From NCBI GenBank assembly GCA_021806645.1, contig JAJZQX010000003.1, positions 186,001 to 250,000 of the forward strand: a DNA stretch of 64,000 nt, written 5' to 3'. The notes beneath the pieces are model-generated. The model saw only the letters and a list, made by a program, of their open reading frames with translations, had not been told where the DNA came from and ran no database searches. Numbering within the stretch: the stretch's first letter is position 1; each line of letters opens with the position of its first letter. Made by a program: the position numbers and the translations under genes. The stretch comes from Myxococcales bacterium. GTDB taxonomy: Bacteria > Myxococcota > Myxococcia > Myxococcales > Anaeromyxobacteraceae. Shown piece by piece: positions 1,141-54,984 of this stretch.

Positions 1141-4100
1141 CTACGGCACCGGCCAGGTGAAGAGGCCGCCCCGCCAGCTGGCGGTGAAGCTCTTCTGCTC
1201 GGTGAACCAGAGGGCCCTGGCGACCGGGTCGAGCGCCATGGCCTGCGGGCCATCGAATTGCCCTGGCGCCAGCAGGTCGATCCCGCCGGTGTCTAGGTTG
1301 ATCCGGTAAAGCGACCGCCAGGAGACCGAGCTGCCGGTCCTCCCCATGGCCAGGGCGGTCCGGTCGCCGGCCGGGGTCAACCCCGGTTCGATCACCAGCT
1401 GCGAGAGGTCGATGGCTGCGACCTCCGTCAGGCTCCCCGAGGCGACGTTCAGGTCCACCCGGTAGAGCTTGCCGTAGTAGTCGCCAGGGGGACTGGAGAC
1501 GCTGGCCGTGAGGGCAGACATCCCGGGGACCTCCGGGACCACGAAGGTCGGCGAGCTCAGCCCGGTGGCCACCGGCACCGCGCCGCTGCCGTCGAGGAAG
1601 ACCCGCCAGACGGTCCCGGTGCCGGCGTCGGCCACCAAGGCGAAGGTGGCGTCCTCGACCGCGATGGCCGCCGGGTTGGTCAGGCCGCTGGCCAGCGGCG
1701 CCCCGACCGTCCAGCTGGCGCCGCCGTCGGTGAGCCGCAGGACCCGGCCGAGCGCCTGGCCGGCGCCGTTGGCGGCGCCGCAGTCGGTGACCAGCAGCTG
1801 CGTCGGGCTCTGCAGCGCGATGGCCCCACCCCCGAACTGGAAGTTGAGGCCGGTCCCCACCGTCGGGTAGAGGGTAGCCACGGCCCCGGTGGCCGGACCG
1901 AGCCGGAGGATCTGGCCGGCGTTGGCGCAGTTGCTCGCCCCGTTGCAGGCGGCCACCAGCACCGTGGCGCCGCCCGCCTCGAGCGCCAGGCCGGCGGGCC
2001 GGTCGAGGTCGTGAAAGCGGGCCGCCGGGCCAAAGGCGGCGGTGGCCGGAACGTGGAGTAGCACGCCCGGGTCACCCAGCACTCGCCTCCTTGCCAGGAC
2101 CAGGACATCGCCCGCGGCGGTGCGGACCAGATCCTGCGCGGTGATCTCCGGCAGCGCCAGCGCCCTGTAGCCACCGGTGGCCAGATCGACCTCCAGCAGC
2201 CTGTCGCCGGCCTGGGCCGACTCGGTGACCAGCGCCGAGCCGGCCGCGCCCAGGCCGATCCCGGACAGTGGCGCGAAGCCGCTGGAGACCACGGTGACCA
2301 GCGGCGCCCCCCCGCCCGAGTCGTCGAACCTGACGATGCTGGTGGCGCTGTCGCAGGTCCGCGTCACCAGCACCCGCCCGGCCGCCTCGACCACCAGCCC
2401 GGTCGCCCCGGTGGAGGCGGTGCCTCCCGGACAGGTGAGGCGGACGTCGCCCACCAGCACGGGTGTGGCCGGCAGCGCCCCGCCCACGGCCACCCGATAG
2501 ACCCGGGTCCCGGACAGGACCATGGCAGTCGCCCCACCCGGCTCCAGCGAGACGTCCAGGGCGCTGTACGCGAAGCTGGCGACCAGCGTGGCGCTTCCCG
2601 CCCCCAGATCGACCCGGTAAAGCATGCCGACGCCGGCCTGCGCCGTGCTCACCAGCGCCGTGGCCTCGCCGGCCTCGAGCACCACCCCGCGCAGCTGCGC
2701 CATGCCGGTGATCACTTGCGTCACCTGCCCGGTGGCGACATCCACCGAGGCCAGCTCGCTAGCCGTGTCGCAGTTTCCCCCGACGCAGTCGGTCACGTAG
2801 GCCTTGGTGCCGGCGGCGTCGACGGCCAACCCGGTGGGGACCTGCAGCGTGGCCACCGAGGTGAAGGCCGGGGCTACTGCCTGCGAAGGCGAAACCACTG
2901 CGGCACGGAGCAGCGCCCCGGGAGCCTCCTGCGTGAGCAGCGCCGTCGTCGCGCCGGCCTCGAGGGCCAGGCCGAAGTGGCCGTTGGAGTTGGTCCCGAT
3001 GATCTCGGTCGCGGTCCCGGTGGCCAGTTGGACCCGGTAGACCCGCCCACCCCCCCAGCCCACGCCGAGCCCGCCCGCCACCAGCGCCGTGGCGCCGCCC
3101 GGCTCGACGGTCACGGTGTTGAGCGAGGAAAGGCCGCTGACCACCGCCACCGTGGTCCCGGCGTAGGTCCCGCTGACGGTCACCCGCTTGACGGCGCCGG
3201 TCCAGCCCGACTCGACCACCAGCGCCTTGCCGCCGGGCTCCAGGGCGATGCCGCGCGGCTCCGCCAGCGCCATGGCCACCGGGAACGGCGTGACCGTCCC
3301 GGTCGCCAGGTCGACCTTGACCACCCGCCCCGGCGTCCCGCACCCGCCGCTGGCGTCGGTCACCAGGGCGGTGTTGGCGTCGAGCAGCGCCAGCCCCCAC
3401 GGGCAGGTGAGCGCGGTGGCCGGCGTGGCGGGGTTGACCGGCGCCCGGTGGACGATGACCCCGGTGGGGACGTCGATCTTCGAGAGCCCGCCCGAGTGGA
3501 CCACCCATGCCGTGGTCCCGGCGTCGGCCAGCGCCAGATCGTGGGCCGTGCCAAGGGCGCTGGGCGCCCCGCCGCCCACCACCAGGCCGCTGGCGATGGT
3601 CCGGAGCGCCAGTCGCCGGGCCACGCCCACCCGGACCAACCGGCCGATGCCGTACCCGGAGGAATCGACCTCGGTCACCAGGGCGGTCGCCCCGCCCGGC
3701 TCGATGGCCACGCCCGACGGGCTCTTCAGCCCGCGCGGGGAGCGCACCTCGAGTTCCAGGCTGGCGGCGTGGACCGTGGCGCCGCTGGTTCCGGTGAGCG
3801 AGACGATCGGCGCCGTGGCCGGCGTCAGCGCCGCACCCGCGGACGCGGTCAGGGTCAGGGTCGCTGTCCCGGGCGGTGTCACCGACGCCGGATTGAACGA
3901 GGCGGTGACGCCCGCGGTCAGCCCGCTGGCCGAGAGCGTCACCGGCAGCCCCGCGCCCCGGGCCAAGCCCAGGGTCACCGGGAGGTCCCGCGCCTCCCCC
4001 GGCAGGAGCGACAAGGCCTGCCCCGCCACCACGGGCTGGGAGACCGAGAAGTCGAAAGGGCCGTCGAAGCCGGCCCGGACGGTGGCATCGGCCCCCATGG

Positions 4101-5904
4101 AGAGGGCGCAGGTCCCGGTGCCGGTGCAGCCGCCGCCGCTCCAGCCGGTGAAGCGCCAGCCGGCCGATGGCGTGGCGGTGAGGATCACGGCGGCGCCGTC
4201 TAGGAAGGTGGCGGCGCAGGTCGCCCCGCAGCTCACCCCTCCGAGGTCGGAGGTGACGGTGCCCCCCTCGGCCGGCTCCGGCACCACGGTGAGCGTGCGG
4301 ACCGCGGTGAAGGTGGCCGAGACCGCCCGGTCTGCCGCCAGCGTGACGCTGCAGGGGCCGGTCCCGGTGCAGGCCCCGGCCCAGCCGGTGAACAGGAAGC
4401 CCGGGGAGGCGCTGGCCACGAGCGCGACGGCGGTGGCGTCGACGAAGAGCGCGGCGCAGGCGCCGGTGCCGTCCTGGCAGTCGATGCCGGCCGGGGTGCT
4501 GAGCACCCGTCCCCCCGCCGTGGAGGAGACCGACAGCGTCCACAGGGGCGTGAAGGTGGCGGTCACCGACCGGTCCGCGGTCATGGCCAGCGCGCAGGAC
4601 CCGGTGCCGGTGCAGGCGCCGCTCCAGCCGGAGAACGAGGAGGAGGCGTCGGGCACCGCGACCAGAGTGACGCTGGTCCCGTCCTCGAAGGTGGCGCTGC
4701 AGGTGGCCCCGCACCCGACCCCGGCCGGCGTGGAGGTGACGGTCCCCGACCCCGCCCCTGCGCGGGCGACGTCGAGCCGGCGCAGCGGGACGAAGGTGAT
4801 CGTGGCGGTGAGATCCATGTCCATGACCAGCGCACAGGTCAGCCCGGTGCTCCCGAAACAGTCGCCGCCCCAGCGCACCGCCTGGCCGGGCCCGGGGGCG
4901 GCGGAGAGCGTGACGACGGTGCCGTCGACCACCTGGGCGGCGCAAGTGGCCCCCTGAGTCCCGCAGGCGATCCCACCGACGTCCGAGGTCACGCCGCCGT
5001 CGCCCACCGCGTTCACGGAGAGCGTTCGCAGCACCGCGAAGGAGCTGCTGACGGTGCGATCGGCGCTCATGGTGACGCTGCAGGCGGCCGGGTCCGCCCC
5101 GGCGCAGGCCCCGCTCCAGGCCAGGAAGGCGGCGTCGCCCATGGGGCTGCTGGCCACCAGCGAGACCACCGTCCCGTCCGGGAAGGCGTGGTTGCAGGCG
5201 CCGCCCGAGCAGGAGATCCCGGACGGGACCGACGTCACCAGGGTGGAGACGCCCAGCAAGGGGACGTTCACCGTGAGCAGCCGCGACGGCGGCGGGGCCA
5301 GGTCGAAGGTGGCTGTGACCGCGACGTCGCCCGCCAGGGTGGGCGCGCAGGCGCCGCCCCCGCTGCACCCTCCGCTCCAGCCCGCGAAGGAGGAGCCGGA
5401 GCCGGCGCCCTGGGTCAGCGTCACGACCGTGCCATCGGGAAATCCGGCCGAGCAGGTGCCGACGCCACCGCTGGCGCAGGAGATCCCGGCCGGCGAGCTG
5501 TTGACGGTCCCTGCGCCCGTCCCGGCCACGCTCACTGTGAGCGTCCAGGTGGACGGCGGCGCCACGCCAAAGGTGGCGGTGACGTGGGTCTCGGCGCCGA
5601 CGGTGACGGTACAGGGGCCGGTGCCCGAGCAGGGCCCGCTCCAGCCGTCGAAGCGCGAGCCCGCCGCCGGCGCCGCGGTCAGGGTCCAGGTCGAACCCTG
5701 GGCGGCGGAGACCCCGCAGGCGGTGGCCCCCTGGCCGCAGGAGATGCCCGCCGGGGCACTGGTGACGCGCCCGGCGCCGGCCCCGGCCAGTGCCACGGCG
5801 AGGGGGAACTCGACCGCCGACCCCTGGCCTCCGCCTCCGCCACCCCCGCACCCACCGTGAACAGCAAGCATCGCGAGCAGCACCGGCGCGTGATTCCTGG
5901 ACAT
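1141..5904 (-). CDS. giant secreted protein: seven Cys-rich InlB-type repeats plus beta-propeller repeats
   Basis: A 1587-residue exported protein of unknown function. The ATG at 5904 is preferred over the GTG at 5919 because a G-run lies 5-9 nt upstream and it gives a compact signal sequence ending VHGGC before a poly-Gly run. That suggests a lipoprotein, although His at -3 of the lipobox is atypical. Residues of about 35-590 hold seven tandem repeats of roughly 75 residues. Each has the order TSxPAGIxC, a short Cys segment, DGTxVTL and GWSGxCxGxGxC, ending ATF, as in divergent InlB B-repeats of surface proteins. An Ig-like segment of about 100 residues follows, then about 16 NHL/YVTN-like propeller units with the motif LEPGGATALV followed by YRVDLATG. 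It is probably displayed at the cell surface or in the periplasm. It lies alone, convergent with the dehydrogenase gene. The ligand cannot be inferred. Confidence 0.85.
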   Translation of the reverse strand: MSRNHAPVLLAMLAVHGGCGGGGGGGQGSAVEFPLAVALAGAGAGRVTSAPAGISCGQGATACGVSAAQGSTWTLTAAPAAGSRFDGWSGPCSGTGPCTVTVGAETHVTATFGVAPPSTWTLTVSVAGTGAGTVNSSPAGISCASGGVGTCSAGFPDGTVVTLTQGAGSGSSFAGWSGGCSGGGACAPTLAGDVAVTATFDLAPPPSRLLTVNVPLLGVSTLVTSVPSGISCSGGACNHAFPDGTVVSLVASSPMGDAAFLAWSGACAGADPAACSVTMSADRTVSSSFAVLRTLSVNAVGDGGVTSDVGGIACGTQGATCAAQVVDGTVVTLSAAPGPGQAVRWGGDCFGSTGLTCALVMDMDLTATITFVPLRRLDVARAGAGSGTVTSTPAGVGCGATCSATFEDGTSVTLVAVPDASSSFSGWSGACTGTGSCALAMTADRSVTATFTPLWTLSVSSTAGGRVLSTPAGIDCQDGTGACAALFVDATAVALVASASPGFLFTGWAGACTGTGPCSVTLAADRAVSATFTAVRTLTVVPEPAEGGTVTSDLGGVSCGATCAATFLDGAAVILTATPSAGWRFTGWSGGGCTGTGTCALSMGADATVRAGFDGPFDFSVSQPVVAGQALSLLPGEARDLPVTLGLARGAGLPVTLSASGLTAGVTASFNPASVTPPGTATLTLTASAGAALTPATAPIVSLTGTSGATVHAASLELEVRSPRGLKSPSGVAIEPGGATALVTEVDSSGYGIGRLVRVGVARRLALRTIASGLVVGGGAPSALGTAHDLALADAGTTAWVVHSGGLSKIDVPTGVIVHRAPVNPATPATALTCPWGLALLDANTALVTDASGGCGTPGRVVKVDLATGTVTPFPVAMALAEPRGIALEPGGKALVVESGWTGAVKRVTVSGTYAGTTVAVVSGLSSLNTVTVEPGGATALVAGGLGVGWGGGRVYRVQLATGTATEIIGTNSNGHFGLALEAGATTALLTQEAPGALLRAAVVSPSQAVAPAFTSVATLQVPTGLAVDAAGTKAYVTDCVGGNCDTASELASVDVATGQVTQVITGMAQLRGVVLEAGEATALVSTAQAGVGMLYRVDLGAGSATLVASFAYSALDVSLEPGGATAMVLSGTRVYRVAVGGALPATPVLVGDVRLTCPGGTASTGATGLVVEAAGRVLVTRTCDSATSIVRFDDSGGGAPLVTVVSSGFAPLSGIGLGAAGSALVTESAQAGDRLLEVDLATGGYRALALPEITAQDLVRTAAGDVLVLARRRVLGDPGVLLHVPATAAFGPAARFHDLDRPAGLALEAGGATVLVAACNGASNCANAGQILRLGPATGAVATLYPTVGTGLNFQFGGGAIALQSPTQLLVTDCGAANGAGQALGRVLRLTDGGASWTVGAPLASGLTNPAAIAVEDATFALVADAGTGTVWRVFLDGSGAVPVATGLSSPTFVVPEVPGMSALTASVSSPPGDYYGKLYRVDLNVASGSLTEVAAIDLSQLVIEPGLTPAGDRTALAMGRTGSSVSWRSLYRINLDTGGIDLLAPGQFDGPQAMALDPVARALWFTEQKSFTASWRGGLFTWPVP

Positions 5905-46532: not shown

Positions 46533-47168
46533 TCACACCCCACGCGCGTCCGCCCCCCAGATCAGCTTGTGCAACTGGAGCGAGAGCCTCGCCTCGATCC
46601 CGGCGGCCAGCAGCCACTCCGCGAGTTCCCTCGGCTGGACCGCCGGCACCACCGGCGAGAAGAGGACCGCCACGCGTCCCGGCAACCGGTGGCGCCTGGC
46701 CACCTCCACCGACCAGCCGAAGTCCCCGGGTGACGACACCACGAACTTCACCTCGTCGTGCGGCCGGAGCCGGTCGAGGTAGCCGAAGTCGCGCGTCTCC
46801 TCACCGGAGCCGGGCGGCTTCACGTCGAAGATCCGGACCACCGCCGGGGGCAACGCCTCGGTGTCGCGCTGGCCATGGGTCTCGACCGTCACCTCCCAGC
46901 CGGCCGCGAGCAGGTCGCGGCAGAGCTCGGGAAGCTCCGGCTGCAGCAGCGGCTCGCCCCCCGTGAGGCAGACGTGACGCCCGGCCATGGCGTTCAGCTC
47001 GGCCACGATCGACTGGCGCGACCGCTCCTGACCACCCTGGAATGCGTAGGCGGTGTCGCACCAGGTGCAGCGCAGGTCGCAGCCGGTGAAACGGACGAAG
47101 GCGCACGGTCGCCCGGCCCGCGTCCCCTCGCCCTGGATGCTCCGGAAGATCTCCGTGACGCGCATCAT
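46533..47168 (-). CDS. queE: 7-carboxy-7-deazaguanine synthase
   Basis: A 211-residue radical SAM enzyme that converts 6-carboxytetrahydropterin to 7-carboxy-7-deazaguanine in queuosine biosynthesis. EIFRSIQGEG, GRPCAFVRFTGCDLRCTWCDT (the CX3CX2C cluster) and CLTGGEPLLQ are diagnostic of QueE. The C-terminus LQLHKLIWG is also standard. The start (ATG 47168, or the ATG one codon later) overlaps the lytic transglycosylase stop. No queC, queD or queF is in the window. Confidence 0.95.
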   Translation of the reverse strand: MMRVTEIFRSIQGEGTRAGRPCAFVRFTGCDLRCTWCDTAYAFQGGQERSRQSIVAELNAMAGRHVCLTGGEPLLQPELPELCRDLLAAGWEVTVETHGQRDTEALPPAVVRIFDVKPPGSGEETRDFGYLDRLRPHDEVKFVVSSPGDFGWSVEVARRHRLPGRVAVLFSPVVPAVQPRELAEWLLAAGIEARLSLQLHKLIWGADARGV

Positions 47169-47875
47169 CTCGCACGGGGCGGGGCCCCGGCGTCGGCGAA
47201 TCTCGGACCGGACTCCTCGGGGAGGGTTCGCCGCAGCCGGTGGTACTCGGCCAGCACTCGCCTCGCGTACCCGACGACCCCGGTCGGCACGGAGCCGGCA
47301 TGGATCCAGGCGTAGAGCCGGTTGGGGCCGGCGTTGTAAGCCATCAGCGCCACCTCTCGATCAGGATAGCTGTCGAGGCAGCGTCGCAGGTACCGGATAC
47401 CGGCCCGGACGTTGGCGACCGGGTCGTACGGGTCGCTGGATCCCGTGCCGAACGTCTTGGCCTCACGCTTCAGGGTCCCGGGAAGCAGTTGCATCAGCCC
47501 GAGCGCTCCCGCGGCGCTGACTGCCGCCGGGTCGTAACCCGACTCGACCTGGATGACCGCCAGCACGAGCAGCGGGTCGAGCCGGGCCGCTTCGGCCTCG
47601 GCCAGGATGGTCCGGGCCAGGTCCTCGTGGAGCGCCGGGTCTAGCCCAGGCATGCGCGCGAAGAGGTGGTCCTCCAGCCGCGCCACCCGGCGCTCGCCGA
47701 GCGCGTCGGGGCAACCGGCGGCGAGGCAGGCCCCCATCTCCTGTTCGGCGGGGCGAATCGTCCGCTCGCGGTCGGAGAGCTTCGTCGGAACGGTCAACGC
47801 CCCCGCAGCGAGGAAGGTCACCAGGCCGAGACGGACCGCCCCCCTGACGGTCACCCCCGTCACGCTGGTCGCCAT
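47165..47875 (-). CDS. lytic transglycosylase (SLT family)
   Basis: A 236-residue exported murein hydrolase. An N-terminal hydrophobic segment (RLGLVTFLAAGALTVP) acts as signal or anchor. The catalytic domain shows LVLAVIQVESGYDPAAVSAAGALGLMQLLPGT with the catalytic Glu in VES, then NVRAGIRYLRRCL and ALMAYNAGP, the Slt70/MltE-type pattern. It cleaves the MurNAc-GlcNAc bond to leave 1,6-anhydro ends. Transcribed upstream of queE with a 4-nt overlap. No LysM or SH3 domain is present. Confidence 0.92.
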   Translation of the reverse strand: MATSVTGVTVRGAVRLGLVTFLAAGALTVPTKLSDRERTIRPAEQEMGACLAAGCPDALGERRVARLEDHLFARMPGLDPALHEDLARTILAEAEAARLDPLLVLAVIQVESGYDPAAVSAAGALGLMQLLPGTLKREAKTFGTGSSDPYDPVANVRAGIRYLRRCLDSYPDREVALMAYNAGPNRLYAWIHAGSVPTGVVGYARRVLAEYHRLRRTLPEESGPRFADAGAPPRAR

Positions 47876-47926: not shown

Positions 47927-48349
47927 TCAGTCATCCCTTCCCCCCCTTTTCGGCGTGCTCTTCCTGGCCGGTCGGGCCTTTTGCCCGCTCTCGACCCGCT
48001 TGGCAAGTCGCTCGAGCTCCTGATGCAGCTCCTCGACCTGTTCTCGGGTCGCAACCCCCAGGAAGGACACAACCTTCCCCTGGATCTCGACCATACGCTC
48101 AAGCGCCTCGGCACGTAAGGAATCGGCCTTCCCACGCCACCTCTCGGCACGCTCCCGTCCGGTCTTCTGGAGCAGCTCCAGCTTCCCGCGAAGCTCGGCG
48201 ATCCGGTCCTCGAGGTGGGCGTCGCCCACCATCTTCTCCAATCCGGCCTCGATCTCCTTCCGGCTGGCCTTCCCCTTCTTGGCCAGTTCCTTCAGGATGT
48301 CCGGCACCTTGACGCTTCCGTTCCGGCTGGTGCTGCGCGTCTCGACCAT
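47927..48349 (-). CDS. phasin-like coiled-coil protein
   Basis: A 140-residue Lys/Glu-rich helical protein without signal peptide. ILKELAKKGKASRKEIEAGLEKMVGDAHLEDRIAELRGKLELLQKTGRERAE, then MVEIQGKVVSFLGVATREQVEELHQELERLAKRVE resembles PhaF/phasin proteins of polyhydroxyalkanoate granules, and ends in a basic KARPARKSTPKRGG tail that could bind nucleic acid as in PhaF. No PHA synthase is nearby, so the link to PHA is uncertain. The ATG at 48349 has GAGGGA upstream. A strong palindrome lies 83-107 bp before it. Confidence 0.6.
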   Translation of the reverse strand: MVETRSTSRNGSVKVPDILKELAKKGKASRKEIEAGLEKMVGDAHLEDRIAELRGKLELLQKTGRERAERWRGKADSLRAEALERMVEIQGKVVSFLGVATREQVEELHQELERLAKRVESGQKARPARKSTPKRGGRDD

Positions 48350-48431
48350 GTCGTCCCTCGCTCTAGCGGCGGCGGCAGCAGGCCGCCACGGCCACTTTGG
48401 GGGAGAGTGTGTGCTGACCACCTACGGGCGT

Positions 48432-48456
48432 CAACGTAACGCGACGCGTTACGTTG
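48432..48456. promoter_or_regulatory. operator-like 12-bp inverted repeat
   Basis: CAACGTAACGCG is followed by one A and then its exact reverse complement. It is AT-richer than its surroundings and lies 3 nt from the pyrD stop and 83 bp upstream of the phasin-like start, on the shared minus strand. The one-base spacer and the TAACGCG...CGCGTTA core suit a dimeric regulator (TetR type) better than an RNA hairpin, whose loop would be too tight and which lacks a U-tract. Confidence 0.6.
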
Positions 48457-48459
48457 GGT

Positions 48460-49533
48460 TCATCCCTTCAGGTCTGCTCCGATGACCTCTTCGATCGATC
48501 GGAAGCCGTCGCGCTCCATCAGCCGGCAGAGTCCCTGGTTGACCCGGGACGCGAACCCGGGGCCGCCGTAGATGAAGCCCGTGTAGACCTGGACCAGCGT
48601 GGCGCCTGCCCGGAGCTTGGCCCAGGCGTCCTCGGCCGACATGACGCCGCCCGAGCCGATGACCGGGACGCGGCCGGCCGCGCGCGCGGCCACCCGCCGG
48701 ATCACCTCGGTGGACCGTACCGTGAGCGGGGCCCCGGAGAGCCCGCCCGCCTCCCCCGCGCGCGGGTGGCCCTCGACGCCGGCGCGGGAGAGGGTCGTGT
48801 TGGTGGCCGCGATGGCGGCGACCCCGGCGGCGATGGCCACCTCTACCGCCTCGTCGAGCGCTTCCGCCGCGAGGTCCGGAGCCAGCTTCACCACCAGCCC
48901 CTTGGTGGGCGCCCGCTCCTTCAGCCGCGCCACGCAGCCACGCAGCAGCCGGTCGAGCGCCGCGCGCTCCTGCAACTGCCGGAGCCCGGGCGTGTTGGGC
49001 GAGGAGATGTTGACCACCAGGTAGTCGGCGTACGGGTGGAGCGCGTCGATGCAGGCGAGGTAGTCGTCCACCGCCTGGTCGTTGGGCGTCGTCTTGTTCT
49101 TGCCGAGGTTGATCCCGACCACCCCGGTGCGCGCCTCCGGATCGAGCGCGGCGAGCCGGGCGGCGCAGGCGGCCGCCCCCGCGTTGTTGAACCCCATCCG
49201 GTTGATGAGGGCCCGGTGCTCGGGGAGCCGGAAGATGCGGGGCCGGTCGTTGCCGGATTGCGGACGGGGCGTGATGGTCCCGATCTCGAGGTGCGAGAAC
49301 CCCATCCCCAGCAGCGCCGCGACCGCGACGTCCCCCTTGTCGAAGCCGGCCGCCAGTCCGACGGGGCTGTCGAACTCCAGCCCGAGGCAGCGGACCCGCA
49401 GCCGGGGATCGGCGCGCGGCCGGCGCCGCCGGGCCAACGCCGGCGACACCAGGCGGAGCAGCCGTAGGACCACGCGATGGACGAACTCCGGGTCGAAGCG
49501 GAAGAGGATCCAGCGGAGGAGTCGCCAGCGCAT
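48460..49533 (-). CDS. pyrD: dihydroorotate dehydrogenase (quinone, class 2)
   Basis: A 357-residue FMN enzyme of pyrimidine synthesis that oxidises dihydroorotate with quinone at the inner membrane. The N-terminal helix pair (LLRWILFRFDPEFVHRVVLRLLRLV) is the class 2 membrane-association domain. GLAAGFDKGDVAVAALLGMGFSHLEIGTITPRPQSGNDRPRIFRL, NRMGFNN, VVNISSPNTPGLRQLQ and VPVIGSGGVMSAEDAW are canonical. It lies 11 nt after rimI on the same strand. Confidence 0.96.
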   Translation of the reverse strand: MRWRLLRWILFRFDPEFVHRVVLRLLRLVSPALARRRRPRADPRLRVRCLGLEFDSPVGLAAGFDKGDVAVAALLGMGFSHLEIGTITPRPQSGNDRPRIFRLPEHRALINRMGFNNAGAAACAARLAALDPEARTGVVGINLGKNKTTPNDQAVDDYLACIDALHPYADYLVVNISSPNTPGLRQLQERAALDRLLRGCVARLKERAPTKGLVVKLAPDLAAEALDEAVEVAIAAGVAAIAATNTTLSRAGVEGHPRAGEAGGLSGAPLTVRSTEVIRRVAARAAGRVPVIGSGGVMSAEDAWAKLRAGATLVQVYTGFIYGGPGFASRVNQGLCRLMERDGFRSIEEVIGADLKG

Positions 49534-52506: not shown

Positions 52507-54984
52507 ATGGACCAGTCGCCGACCCCTCCCCAGGCCGCGCCGGTTTCCCGCGGGATGGGGAGGCTCTTCGAGCCGGTCCGGGTGCCCCGCGAGGCGCCAG
52601 CCGAGCTGGCGGCGCTGGCGGCCCGTGGGAGCCTGGTCTTCGTGATGCGGCGCTCGGGGCTGCTAAACTTCCTCTACCTGCGCTGGCTGCTGCGCCGCCA
52701 CGGACTGCCACCGCTCCGGGCCGCGCAGGGCTACACCGGGATCTTCGGCGCGCTCTCGCGCATCCGCCGCACGCGGCGAGCGCTGGAGGAGGCGGTGGGC
52801 GCGGGGCGGTCGAGCGTGCTCTTCCTCGGCAGCCGCGACACGGGGGCCGAGCCGCTGGACCACCTGGTCCGGATGCAGCGGTCGCTGGCGCGCCCCGTCT
52901 TCCTGGTCCCACTCCTGCTCCTCTGGAGCCGGCGGGCACAGCGGCTGGAGGGCTCCTTCTGGGACGTCCTCTTCGGCACGCCGGAGTCGCCCAGCACCTT
53001 GTCCAACGCCATCGCCTTCCTCCGAAACTTCCGGCACAGCTTCCTCTCGGTCGGCCAGGCCGTAGACCTGCAGGCCCGCATCGCCGCGCGGCCCGGCGCC
53101 ACCAACCTCTCGGTGGCGCGTGGCGCCCGCGGCGCCCTGCACCAGCACCTCTCGCGCGAGCTCCGGGCGGCGGTCGGGCCGCCGCTCAAGGGGCCGGGCC
53201 GCGTCAAGGCCAGGGTGCTGCGCGACCGGACCCTGCGGACCAGGCTGGAAGGGCTGGCGGCCGAGACCGGCAGGCCGTACCAGGCGCTGCACCTCGAGGC
53301 GGCGCGCTGCCTCGACGAGCTCGCCAGCAACTACGACCCCAAGGTGGTGGCGCTGGCGCGGCCCGTCCTCAAGGCGCTCTTCCTGAAGCTCTACGAGTCG
53401 CTGGAGATCGACGAGGACGGGCTGGGGCGGGTGAAGCGCGCCGCCGCCACCGCGCCGGTCGTCATCTGTCCCAGCCACAAGAGCTACGTGGACTTCCTGG
53501 TCATCTCCTGGCTCCTCTACGAGCACGGGATGATGGCGCCGCACATCGCCGCCGGCATCAACCTCTCCTTCTGGCCGGCCGGGCCGTTCTTCCGGCGCGG
53601 AGGCGCCTTCTTCATCCGAAGGCAGGTGAAGGGCGACCCGGTCTACGCCGCGGTGCTGCGGGCCTTCGTCAAGCAGCTGCTGCGCGACAGGTTCCCCCAG
53701 GAGTTCTACATCGAGGGCGGGCGCAGCCGGACCGGCAAGCTGCTCTTCCCGAAGATGGGGTTGGTCTCGATGGAGGTGGACGCCTGGCTCGACGGCGCCG
53801 CCGAGGACGTGCTCTTCGTGCCGGTCTCCATCGACTACGAGAAGCTGATCGAGGCGTCGGCCTACCTGCGCGAGCTCTCGGGCGGCGAGAAGAAGAAGGA
53901 GAACCTGCGCGGCCTGCTGGGGGCCATCGCCGTCCTCTTCCGCAGCTACGAGCGACTCTACGTGCAGTTCGAGGAGCCGGTCTCCCTCCGCGCCGTGGCC
54001 CTGGCGCGCCTGGGCGAGCGGGCCGCCGGCCTGGCCACCGACCCCGGGGCTCGCCGCCTGCTGGTGCAGGCCATGGCCACGCGCATCGCCTTCGGCATCG
54101 GAAAGGCGGTCACCATCACGCCGGTCGGGCTGGTCTGCGCCGCGCTGCTCCCGAACGTCCGGCACGGCCTCCCTGCCTCGGAGCTGACACGCCGCGTGGA
54201 GCTGCTCCGCTTCATGGCGGCCGAGGACGGCGCCCGCTTCGGCCGCGGGCTGGCCGGCGCCAGCAGCGATCCCCGCCACGACGGGCCGGTGAGAGACGCC
54301 GTCCGGCGGCTGGTGGCCAGCGGGCAGGTGACGACCGCCAGCGCGGCGGGTGAGACCACCTACCTGGTGGTCACCGAGAAGCGGCCGGTGCTCGACTACC
54401 ACCGCAACGCCGTCATCCACCGCTACGTGGCGCCGGCCATCGCCTCCGCGGCGGTGCTGGGAGGCGGCCAGGGCACCCTGGCCGAGGTGCGTGGCCGGGC
54501 CGAGTGGCTCTCGCGCCTCTTCAAGCTGGAGTTCATGTACGAGCCGGGCGCGGAGCTTTCCAACGTGTTCGAGAAGAACGTGGCCTTCCTGCGGCGGCTC
54601 GGCGCGGTGGAGGTGGAGGGAGACCGGATCCGGCCCGGTGCGTCGCGCGAACCGGCCGAGTTCCTCGCCGAGTTCCTCCGTCCGTACCTCGAGGCCTACC
54701 GGCTCGCCGCCGAGACGGCGCAGGCGCTGCTCGGTGACGCATCGCGTCACCCCGTGGAGCGAAAGGCGCTGGTGAAGCACTGCCTCGAGCGCGGCCATGC
54801 CGACCTGCTCACCGGCCGCATCGCGACGCGCGAAGCGCTCTCCAAGGCCACGCTTGAGAATTCCGTCGAGTGGCTGCTGTCGTCCGGGCGCATCGTCGAC
54901 CGCAACGGTCGACTGGAACTGGCCACGGATCCTGACGCGTTGCGCGAAATCATCGACGGGATCACTCGTCATCTTTCGCCGTGA
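52507..54984 (+). CDS. plsB: glycerol-3-phosphate 1-O-acyltransferase
   Basis: An 825-residue membrane acyltransferase making lysophosphatidic acid, close to the 807 residues of E. coli PlsB. Block I SHKSYVDF (His near residue 323, H-x4-D), block II GPFFRRGGAFFIRR, block III FYIEGGRSRTGKLLFPKMG and block IV VLFVPVSIDY are complete. The long N-terminal region (about 300 residues) and the C-terminal helical part are also typical. Upstream HEAT gene ends 6 nt before it. Confidence 0.95.
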   Translation: MDQSPTPPQAAPVSRGMGRLFEPVRVPREAPAELAALAARGSLVFVMRRSGLLNFLYLRWLLRRHGLPPLRAAQGYTGIFGALSRIRRTRRALEEAVGAGRSSVLFLGSRDTGAEPLDHLVRMQRSLARPVFLVPLLLLWSRRAQRLEGSFWDVLFGTPESPSTLSNAIAFLRNFRHSFLSVGQAVDLQARIAARPGATNLSVARGARGALHQHLSRELRAAVGPPLKGPGRVKARVLRDRTLRTRLEGLAAETGRPYQALHLEAARCLDELASNYDPKVVALARPVLKALFLKLYESLEIDEDGLGRVKRAAATAPVVICPSHKSYVDFLVISWLLYEHGMMAPHIAAGINLSFWPAGPFFRRGGAFFIRRQVKGDPVYAAVLRAFVKQLLRDRFPQEFYIEGGRSRTGKLLFPKMGLVSMEVDAWLDGAAEDVLFVPVSIDYEKLIEASAYLRELSGGEKKKENLRGLLGAIAVLFRSYERLYVQFEEPVSLRAVALARLGERAAGLATDPGARRLLVQAMATRIAFGIGKAVTITPVGLVCAALLPNVRHGLPASELTRRVELLRFMAAEDGARFGRGLAGASSDPRHDGPVRDAVRRLVASGQVTTASAAGETTYLVVTEKRPVLDYHRNAVIHRYVAPAIASAAVLGGGQGTLAEVRGRAEWLSRLFKLEFMYEPGAELSNVFEKNVAFLRRLGAVEVEGDRIRPGASREPAEFLAEFLRPYLEAYRLAAETAQALLGDASRHPVERKALVKHCLERGHADLLTGRIATREALSKATLENSVEWLLSSGRIVDRNGRLELATDPDALREIIDGITRHLSP

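What the first reader, a model, noticed from the sequence alone, without database searches (positions are those of the whole stretch)
48432..48456. Perfect 12+1+12 inverted repeat upstream of the phasin-like gene
CAACGTAACGCG, one base, then its exact complement, in AT-richer context within GC-rich DNA. Chance is low and the tight spacer favours a protein operator. It could control the phasin-like gene or act on pyrD 3' end.
Basis: seen in the sequence. Interest (0 to 1): 0.55.

Follow-up and report, generated by a model that had tools for sequence, protein, structure and literature searches.

The report
PhaR-type operator before a phasin-like gene
The perfect inverted repeat is most likely a docking site for a PhaR-type repressor that controls a granule-coat (phasin-like) gene, and it sits in bacteria that appear to have no enzyme for making the bioplastic that PhaR normally senses.

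Summary
The repeat is real: CAACGTAACGCG-A-CGCGTTACGTTG at 48432-48456, the longest short-spacer palindrome in the window and unique in its genome at up to 3 mismatches. Its inner 15 bp (TAACGCGTCGCGTTA, minus strand) is one instance of a conserved box, TRACGCRNYGCGTYR. All 25 orthologous pyrD-phasin gaps compared carry such a box, just before the -35 (TTGAC), between -35 and -10, or both. The window's copy is the upstream box; its last three bases are the first three of the -35 TTGACG. Across bacteria the box plus TTGAC stands before phasin-like genes, genes for the PhaR (PHB_acc_N) regulator, or HigBA toxin-antitoxin operons. The core matches the published PhaR palindrome (YGCRNYGCR), and two boxes flanking -35 are reported for Sinorhizobium meliloti phasin promoters. 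The window's genome encodes a PhaR-domain protein whose own promoter carries the core. So the site is best read as a PhaR-type operator, not a TetR site and not a pyrD signal. The unexpected part: 0 of 24 genomes of the family have a recognisable PHA synthase, although 20 of 24 keep PhaR and all 24 have the phasin-like gene. What PhaR senses there is open. All functional steps are inferred.

The parts
48432..48456 (-). Perfect 12+1+12 inverted repeat (the finding); upstream operator of the phasin-like promoter
48437..48451 (-). 15-bp conserved box TAACGCGTCGCGTTA containing the PhaR-type core CGCGTCGCG (YGCRNYGCR)
48429..48434 (-). Predicted -35 element TTGACG; its first three bases are the last three of the palindrome
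   Evidence: same place relative to the box as in the relatives
48406..48411 (-). Possible weak -10 (CACACT, spacer 17); uncertain. No second operator recognised here, unlike several relatives
   Evidence: no sigma-70 consensus match found
47927..48349 (-). Phasin-like gene (140 aa); PF05597 Phasin 17.4 bits, below the 28.8 cut-off
48460..49533 (-). pyrD (dihydroorotate dehydrogenase), upstream neighbour; its stop lies 3 bp from the palindrome
47165..47875 (-). Lytic transglycosylase (SLT domain), next gene downstream, synteny conserved in most relatives
46533..47168 (-). queE-like gene (name recalled), end of the conserved block

Best explanation
The palindrome is the upstream operator of the promoter of the phasin-like gene, bound by the genome's PhaR-type (PHB_acc_N) regulator, probably as a symmetric dimer or tetramer. 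The protein would sit directly against and over the -35 element and keep RNA polymerase off. Repression would lift when PhaR is drawn away by a hydrophobic surface that the phasin-like protein coats; in known systems that surface is the PHB granule. Shown here: the site, its conservation and position, the presence of a PhaR-domain gene, and the match to the published core and layout. Inferred: that this PhaR binds it, that it represses, and what releases it.
For: Conservation: all 25 orthologous pyrD-phasin gaps hold the box at up to 2 mismatches, 24 at up to 1, 21 exactly; 200 shuffled sets gave means of 0.48, 0.03 and 0 sites. The template was read from these gaps, so the test is partly circular. 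Layout: a box just before -35 TTGAC, one between -35 and -10, or both. Literature: S. meliloti PhaR palindrome with core YGCRNYGCR; [quoted passage not shown] mutation abolishes binding, and either copy suffices for it (PMC12542648, passages). Regulator: PHB_acc_N in 20 of 24 family genomes and 16 of 16 high-quality ones, including the window's. The window genome's phaR promoter has TGCGTTGCA just after its -10. Specificity: genomes with the box before a phasin-like or other non-HigBA gene have PhaR in 31 of 32, against 9 of 18 for HigBA-type sites, Fisher p 0.00016. Downstream genes in the wide scan include PhaR itself, phasins and a thiolase.
Against: No binding experiment. This copy stands alone: no second box is recognisable here and it is degenerate in G002. 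The window's -10 is weak. Only 5 of 21 readable phaR promoters carry the exact core next to -10; a sixth has a core elsewhere and 15 have none, so autoregulation is not general in the family. The window's PhaR scores 78 bits against TIGR01848, below its equivalog cut-off of 109, and no C-terminal PHB_acc domain was reported. The phasin-like protein is below the cut-offs of both phasin models. No PHA synthase was found in 24 of 24 family genomes, so the classical ligand may be missing.
Confidence: 0.84

Rival explanations
1. The site is bound by a HigA-type antitoxin (XRE family) rather than PhaR: HigBA promoters in many phyla carry TTGAC followed by TAACGCRNYGCGTTA.
For: 18 of 80 loci of the wide scan are HigBA operons with a near-identical box; the window's box has the TAACGC half-sites typical of them (17 of 18 TA). 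GraA, a HigA relative, binds a TAACGTTA palindrome (PMC6393540, passages). The window genome has two HigA genes over the cut-off.
Against: HigA is missing (no match) from G015, G017 and G019, which keep the phasin box. No box at up to 1 mismatch lies near either HigA gene of the window genome; the one HigA locus I read, C11, has none by eye. HigBA-type sites never had a second box nearby (0 of 18) while phasin/PhaR-type and other sites often do (35 of 62).
Confidence: 0.05
2. A TetR-family operator.
For: Only the general form: a symmetric palindrome close to a promoter.
Against: The core and the two-box layout match PhaR, and the box goes with PhaR presence across phyla. I did not search for TetR genes.
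Confidence: 0.04
3. An RNA hairpin at the end of the pyrD transcript (terminator or mRNA stabiliser).
For: The transcript folds into an 11-bp stem with a 3-nt loop (z -2.2), directly after the pyrD stop.
Against: No T-run and no terminator-like site. In relatives the distance to the pyrD stop varies from 7 to 166 nt (24 loci with a box at up to 1 mismatch) while the distance to TTGAC is nearly constant. The conserved boxes are similar in sequence, not only in pairing.
Confidence: 0.04
4. A chance palindrome.
For: About 0.05 such arms (12 or more, spacer 0-10) expected per window; the outer 5 bp on each side are not conserved.
Against: The inner 15 bp are conserved in place and sequence.
Confidence: 0.02

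Closest known systems
PhaR (AniA) operators of Sinorhizobium meliloti phaP1/phaP2 (PMC12542648)
   Same: Palindromic core YGCRNYGCR; box placed against the -35 of a phasin promoter; two copies flanking -35 in several relatives of the window.
   Different: Flanks differ (TRA...TYA rather than AT-rich arms); the window keeps one recognisable copy; no PHA synthase found in the family.
PhaR/PhbF boxes of Paracoccus, Rhodobacter and Herbaspirillum (TGC-N3-GCA; PMC3206438)
   Same: Same 9-bp frame GC-N3-GC and repression of phasin genes.
   Different: Outer letters TGC...GCA there, CGC...GCG here.
HigA/GraA operators of HigBA toxin-antitoxin operons (PMC6393540 for GraA)
   Same: TAAC half-sites; TTGAC in front of a TAACGCRNYGCGTTA box in many phyla.
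   Different: Single box, unrelated regulator and target genes.

Membership tests
PhaR regulon site (PhaR box) | Core YGCRNYGCR palindrome | tested here: met
   CGCGTCGCG inside 48437-48451; published motif
PhaR regulon site (PhaR box) | Overlaps or abuts the promoter of a phasin gene | tested here: met
   Abuts and overlaps TTGACG; the target is phasin-like but below model cut-offs
PhaR regulon site (PhaR box) | PhaR regulator encoded in the same genome | tested here: met
   PHB_acc_N 97 bits at G000:C25:30290-30469
PhaR regulon site (PhaR box) | PhaR binds the site in vitro and represses | not testable with these tools
   needs EMSA and a reporter
PhaR protein family (the G000 protein) | NCBIfam equivalog TIGR01848 above cut-off | tested here: not met
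   78.1 bits against 109.45; called PhaR-type, not PhaR equivalog
PhaR protein family (the G000 protein) | PHB_acc C-terminal domain (PF05233, name and number recalled) | tested here: not met
   Only PHB_acc_N passes its cut-off
Phasin (PF05597) | Model score above the gathering cut-off | tested here: not met
   17.4 of 28.8 bits; best of the five relatives scanned 26.2 bits; hence 'phasin-like'
PHA storage system | PHA synthase (PhaC) in the genome | tested here: not met
   PF07167 0 of 24; TIGR01836 0 of 24 over cut-off, best 35.8 of 365.3 bits
HigA operator | Lies before a HigBA operon or goes with HigA presence | tested here: not met
TetR-family operator | A TetR gene nearby or conserved together with the site | not tested
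   no search made for TetR genes
Intrinsic terminator | G+C-rich hairpin followed by a T-run | tested here: not met
   0 found in 48200-48700

The most novel reading that the evidence does not exclude
A PhaR-phasin regulatory pair has outlived, or never needed, PHA synthase in Anaeromyxobacteraceae and in many other phyla. A PhaR-type protein with a different C-terminal part would read the state of some other hydrophobic surface (for example neutral-lipid bodies or membrane) and set the amount of a phasin-like coat protein through this operator.
Probability: 0.4. Interest if true: 0.75.

Novelty: new variant of a known kind. Interest (0 to 1): 0.5.

Why it matters
PhaR is understood as a sensor of PHB granules. 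If the same operator logic runs in lineages without PHA synthase, then either PhaR senses something else or an unknown polymer or lipid store exists there. The conserved box gives a concrete handle for finding the regulon, and so the missing substrate, in phyla where I found nothing on it in the library searched (Myxococcota, Rokubacteria, Chloroflexota, Acidobacteriota).

Tried and rejected
Full 25-mer elsewhere: no further copy in the genome; one 3-mismatch match in a relative (G005) away from the phasin gene, taken as chance or unrelated.

TetR, terminator, HigA and chance readings: see rivals.

Similarity between the PhaR C-terminus and the phasin-like protein: hhalign probability 6.6%, not supported.

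Solved structure of a PhaR relative: no match at E 0.01.

Third exact box in the window (54735-54749): the ORF around it was read by eye only as plsB-like; taken as probable chance.

Of the 53, 8 were set aside as unclear or cut short (L079, L099, L100, L101, L113, L115, L118, L137), L092 is PhaR by eye, and L150 gave no protein. Thus 44 (L092 included) went to the family scans: 15 matched Phasin and 1 PHB_acc_N in Pfam, 16 matched TIGR01837 in NCBIfam; most of the rest are small proteins for which no phasin model was reported. One search used 50 of 80 loci (18 HigBA and the first 32 of the 44 other loci, L092 left out); one search used 50 of the 54 phasin- or PhaR-type loci.

Literature: searches found nothing in the listings on PhaR or phasin regulation in Anaeromyxobacter or on PhaR without PHA synthase; only listings and abstract starts were seen, apart from passages of five papers. 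The library lacks most subscription journals.

Full report
Observation. The palindrome is at the stated place and is perfect. It is unique at up to 3 mismatches in the window and in the genome. Chance gives about 0.05 perfect arms of 12 or more (spacer 0-10) per window of this composition, so symmetry alone is suggestive, not decisive.

Setting. Four genes run on the minus strand: pyrD, the phasin-like gene, a lytic transglycosylase and queE (queE is my recalled name). The palindrome begins 3 bp after the pyrD stop and ends 82 bp before the phasin-like ATG. The window's genome (4.14 Mb, 33 contigs) belongs to a family that, judged by equal contig lengths, includes Anaeromyxobacter (G020:C71 and L152's contig, both 57,669 bases; G016:C198 and L150's contig, both 48,552 bases). 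The organism's name was not told; this is inference.

Conservation. The phasin-like protein was found in 40 of 60 genomes searched, and in all 24 of the family (the match in G023 is weak, E 8e-6). Of the 30 loci fetched, 25 contain pyrD together with the phasin-like gene. Every one of these 25 gaps carries the box TRACGCRNYGCGTYR at up to 2 mismatches (24 at up to 1, 21 exactly), against means of 0.48, 0.03 and 0 sites in 200 shuffles. The template came from these gaps, so this is a description with a control rather than a blind test. Over 24 family genomes, the pattern TRACGCRNYGCGTYA had 32 places against 1 for the reversed control pattern, and 20 of 24 genomes had it.

Promoter layout. Anchored on TTGAC, many relatives show a box between -35 and the -10 region at spacer 17-18, and several show another box just before -35 (19 of the 25 gaps shown). 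In the window the palindrome is that upstream box, 17 nt from box start to TTGAC, as in L006, L007 and L008. The last three bases of the palindrome are the first three of TTGACG, which accounts for part of the unusually long arm. The inner box is missing here and degenerate in G002. The window's -10 is weak (CACACT), so the exact promoter is uncertain.

Wide scan. By downstream gene they fall into 18 HigBA, 9 PhaR (10 with L092) and 53 others. Of 44 readable others, 15 match Phasin in Pfam and 16 TIGR01837, one is a thiolase, and most of the rest are small proteins for which no phasin model was reported. A second box lies nearby in 27 of 53 others and 8 of 9 PhaR loci, but in 0 of 18 HigBA loci. 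PhaR is encoded in 31 of 32 tested non-HigBA genomes and in 9 of 18 HigBA genomes (Fisher p 0.00016).

Regulator. PHB_acc_N is found in 20 of 24 family genomes and in 16 of 16 of high quality, including the window's own. That protein has the DNA-binding domain (95 bits, cut-off 25), but falls below the PhaR equivalog cut-off, and no other domain passes its cut-off. Its own promoter carries TGCGTTGCA just after the -10; across the family 5 of 21 readable phaR promoters do so, 1 has a core elsewhere and 15 have none.

Known biology. From passages of PMC12542648: the S. meliloti PhaR palindrome has the core YGCRNYGCR; phaP1 and phaP2 have two copies flanking -35; point changes abolish binding and either copy suffices for it. 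From passages of PMC3206438: PhbF recognises TG[N]TGC[N]3GCAA and represses phaP1; PhaR of R. eutropha binds upstream of -35 and at the start site of phaP. From passages of PMC10888616: a Bradyrhizobium motif NGCN(3)GC[GA]N(3). The core in the window fits these.

The missing synthase. PhaC_N was found in 0 of 24 family genomes, while the control Caulobacter was found. The class III model reached at most 35.8 bits against a cut-off of 365.3. Among 50 other genomes with phasin- or PhaR-type boxes, 11 matched PhaC_N (10 over the cut-off), and only two over the full domain. Many of these are metagenome bins and may be incomplete, and divergent synthases could be missed. Still, PhaR plus phasin-like genes without a recognisable synthase looks common.

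Mechanism. I think a PhaR-type dimer or tetramer on this box blocks the -35 of the phasin-like promoter and is drawn away when its hydrophobic target appears. Site, position and partner gene are shown; binding, repression and ligand are inferred.

Noticed in passing
G000:C24:40535-40549 (L076 from 2036); also L065, L066, L067, L068, L075: A second copy of the box (TAACGCRNCGCGTCA) overlaps the TAA stop codon of a bactofilin gene downstream of parA-parB (gene names recalled). The 15-mer is almost invariant in six genomes while the flanks diverge, yet no promoter is evident after it.
   Followed up: partly
L078, L080, L082, L084, L086-L088, L090, L094, L096, L105, L109, L116, L131-L133, L148, L153: HigBA toxin-antitoxin operons of many phyla share a TTGAC + TAACGCRNYGCGTTA promoter box that looks almost identical to the PhaR-type box, an apparent convergence of two unrelated regulators.
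   Followed up: partly
L138:3911-3935 (gene 4055-5257, +): The box stands before a thiolase gene in an Anaerolineae bin, suggesting that the PhaR-type regulon there includes acyl-CoA metabolism.
   Followed up: no
L070, L071, L074 (genus g6 of the family): Box copies next to or between an amidohydrolase-like gene and a livK-like binding-protein gene (names read by eye), so the regulon may be wider in that genus.
   Followed up: no
window 54735-54749: An exact TGACGCATCGCGTCA box inside a plsB-like coding sequence, 6.3 kb from the palindrome; probably chance.
   Followed up: partly
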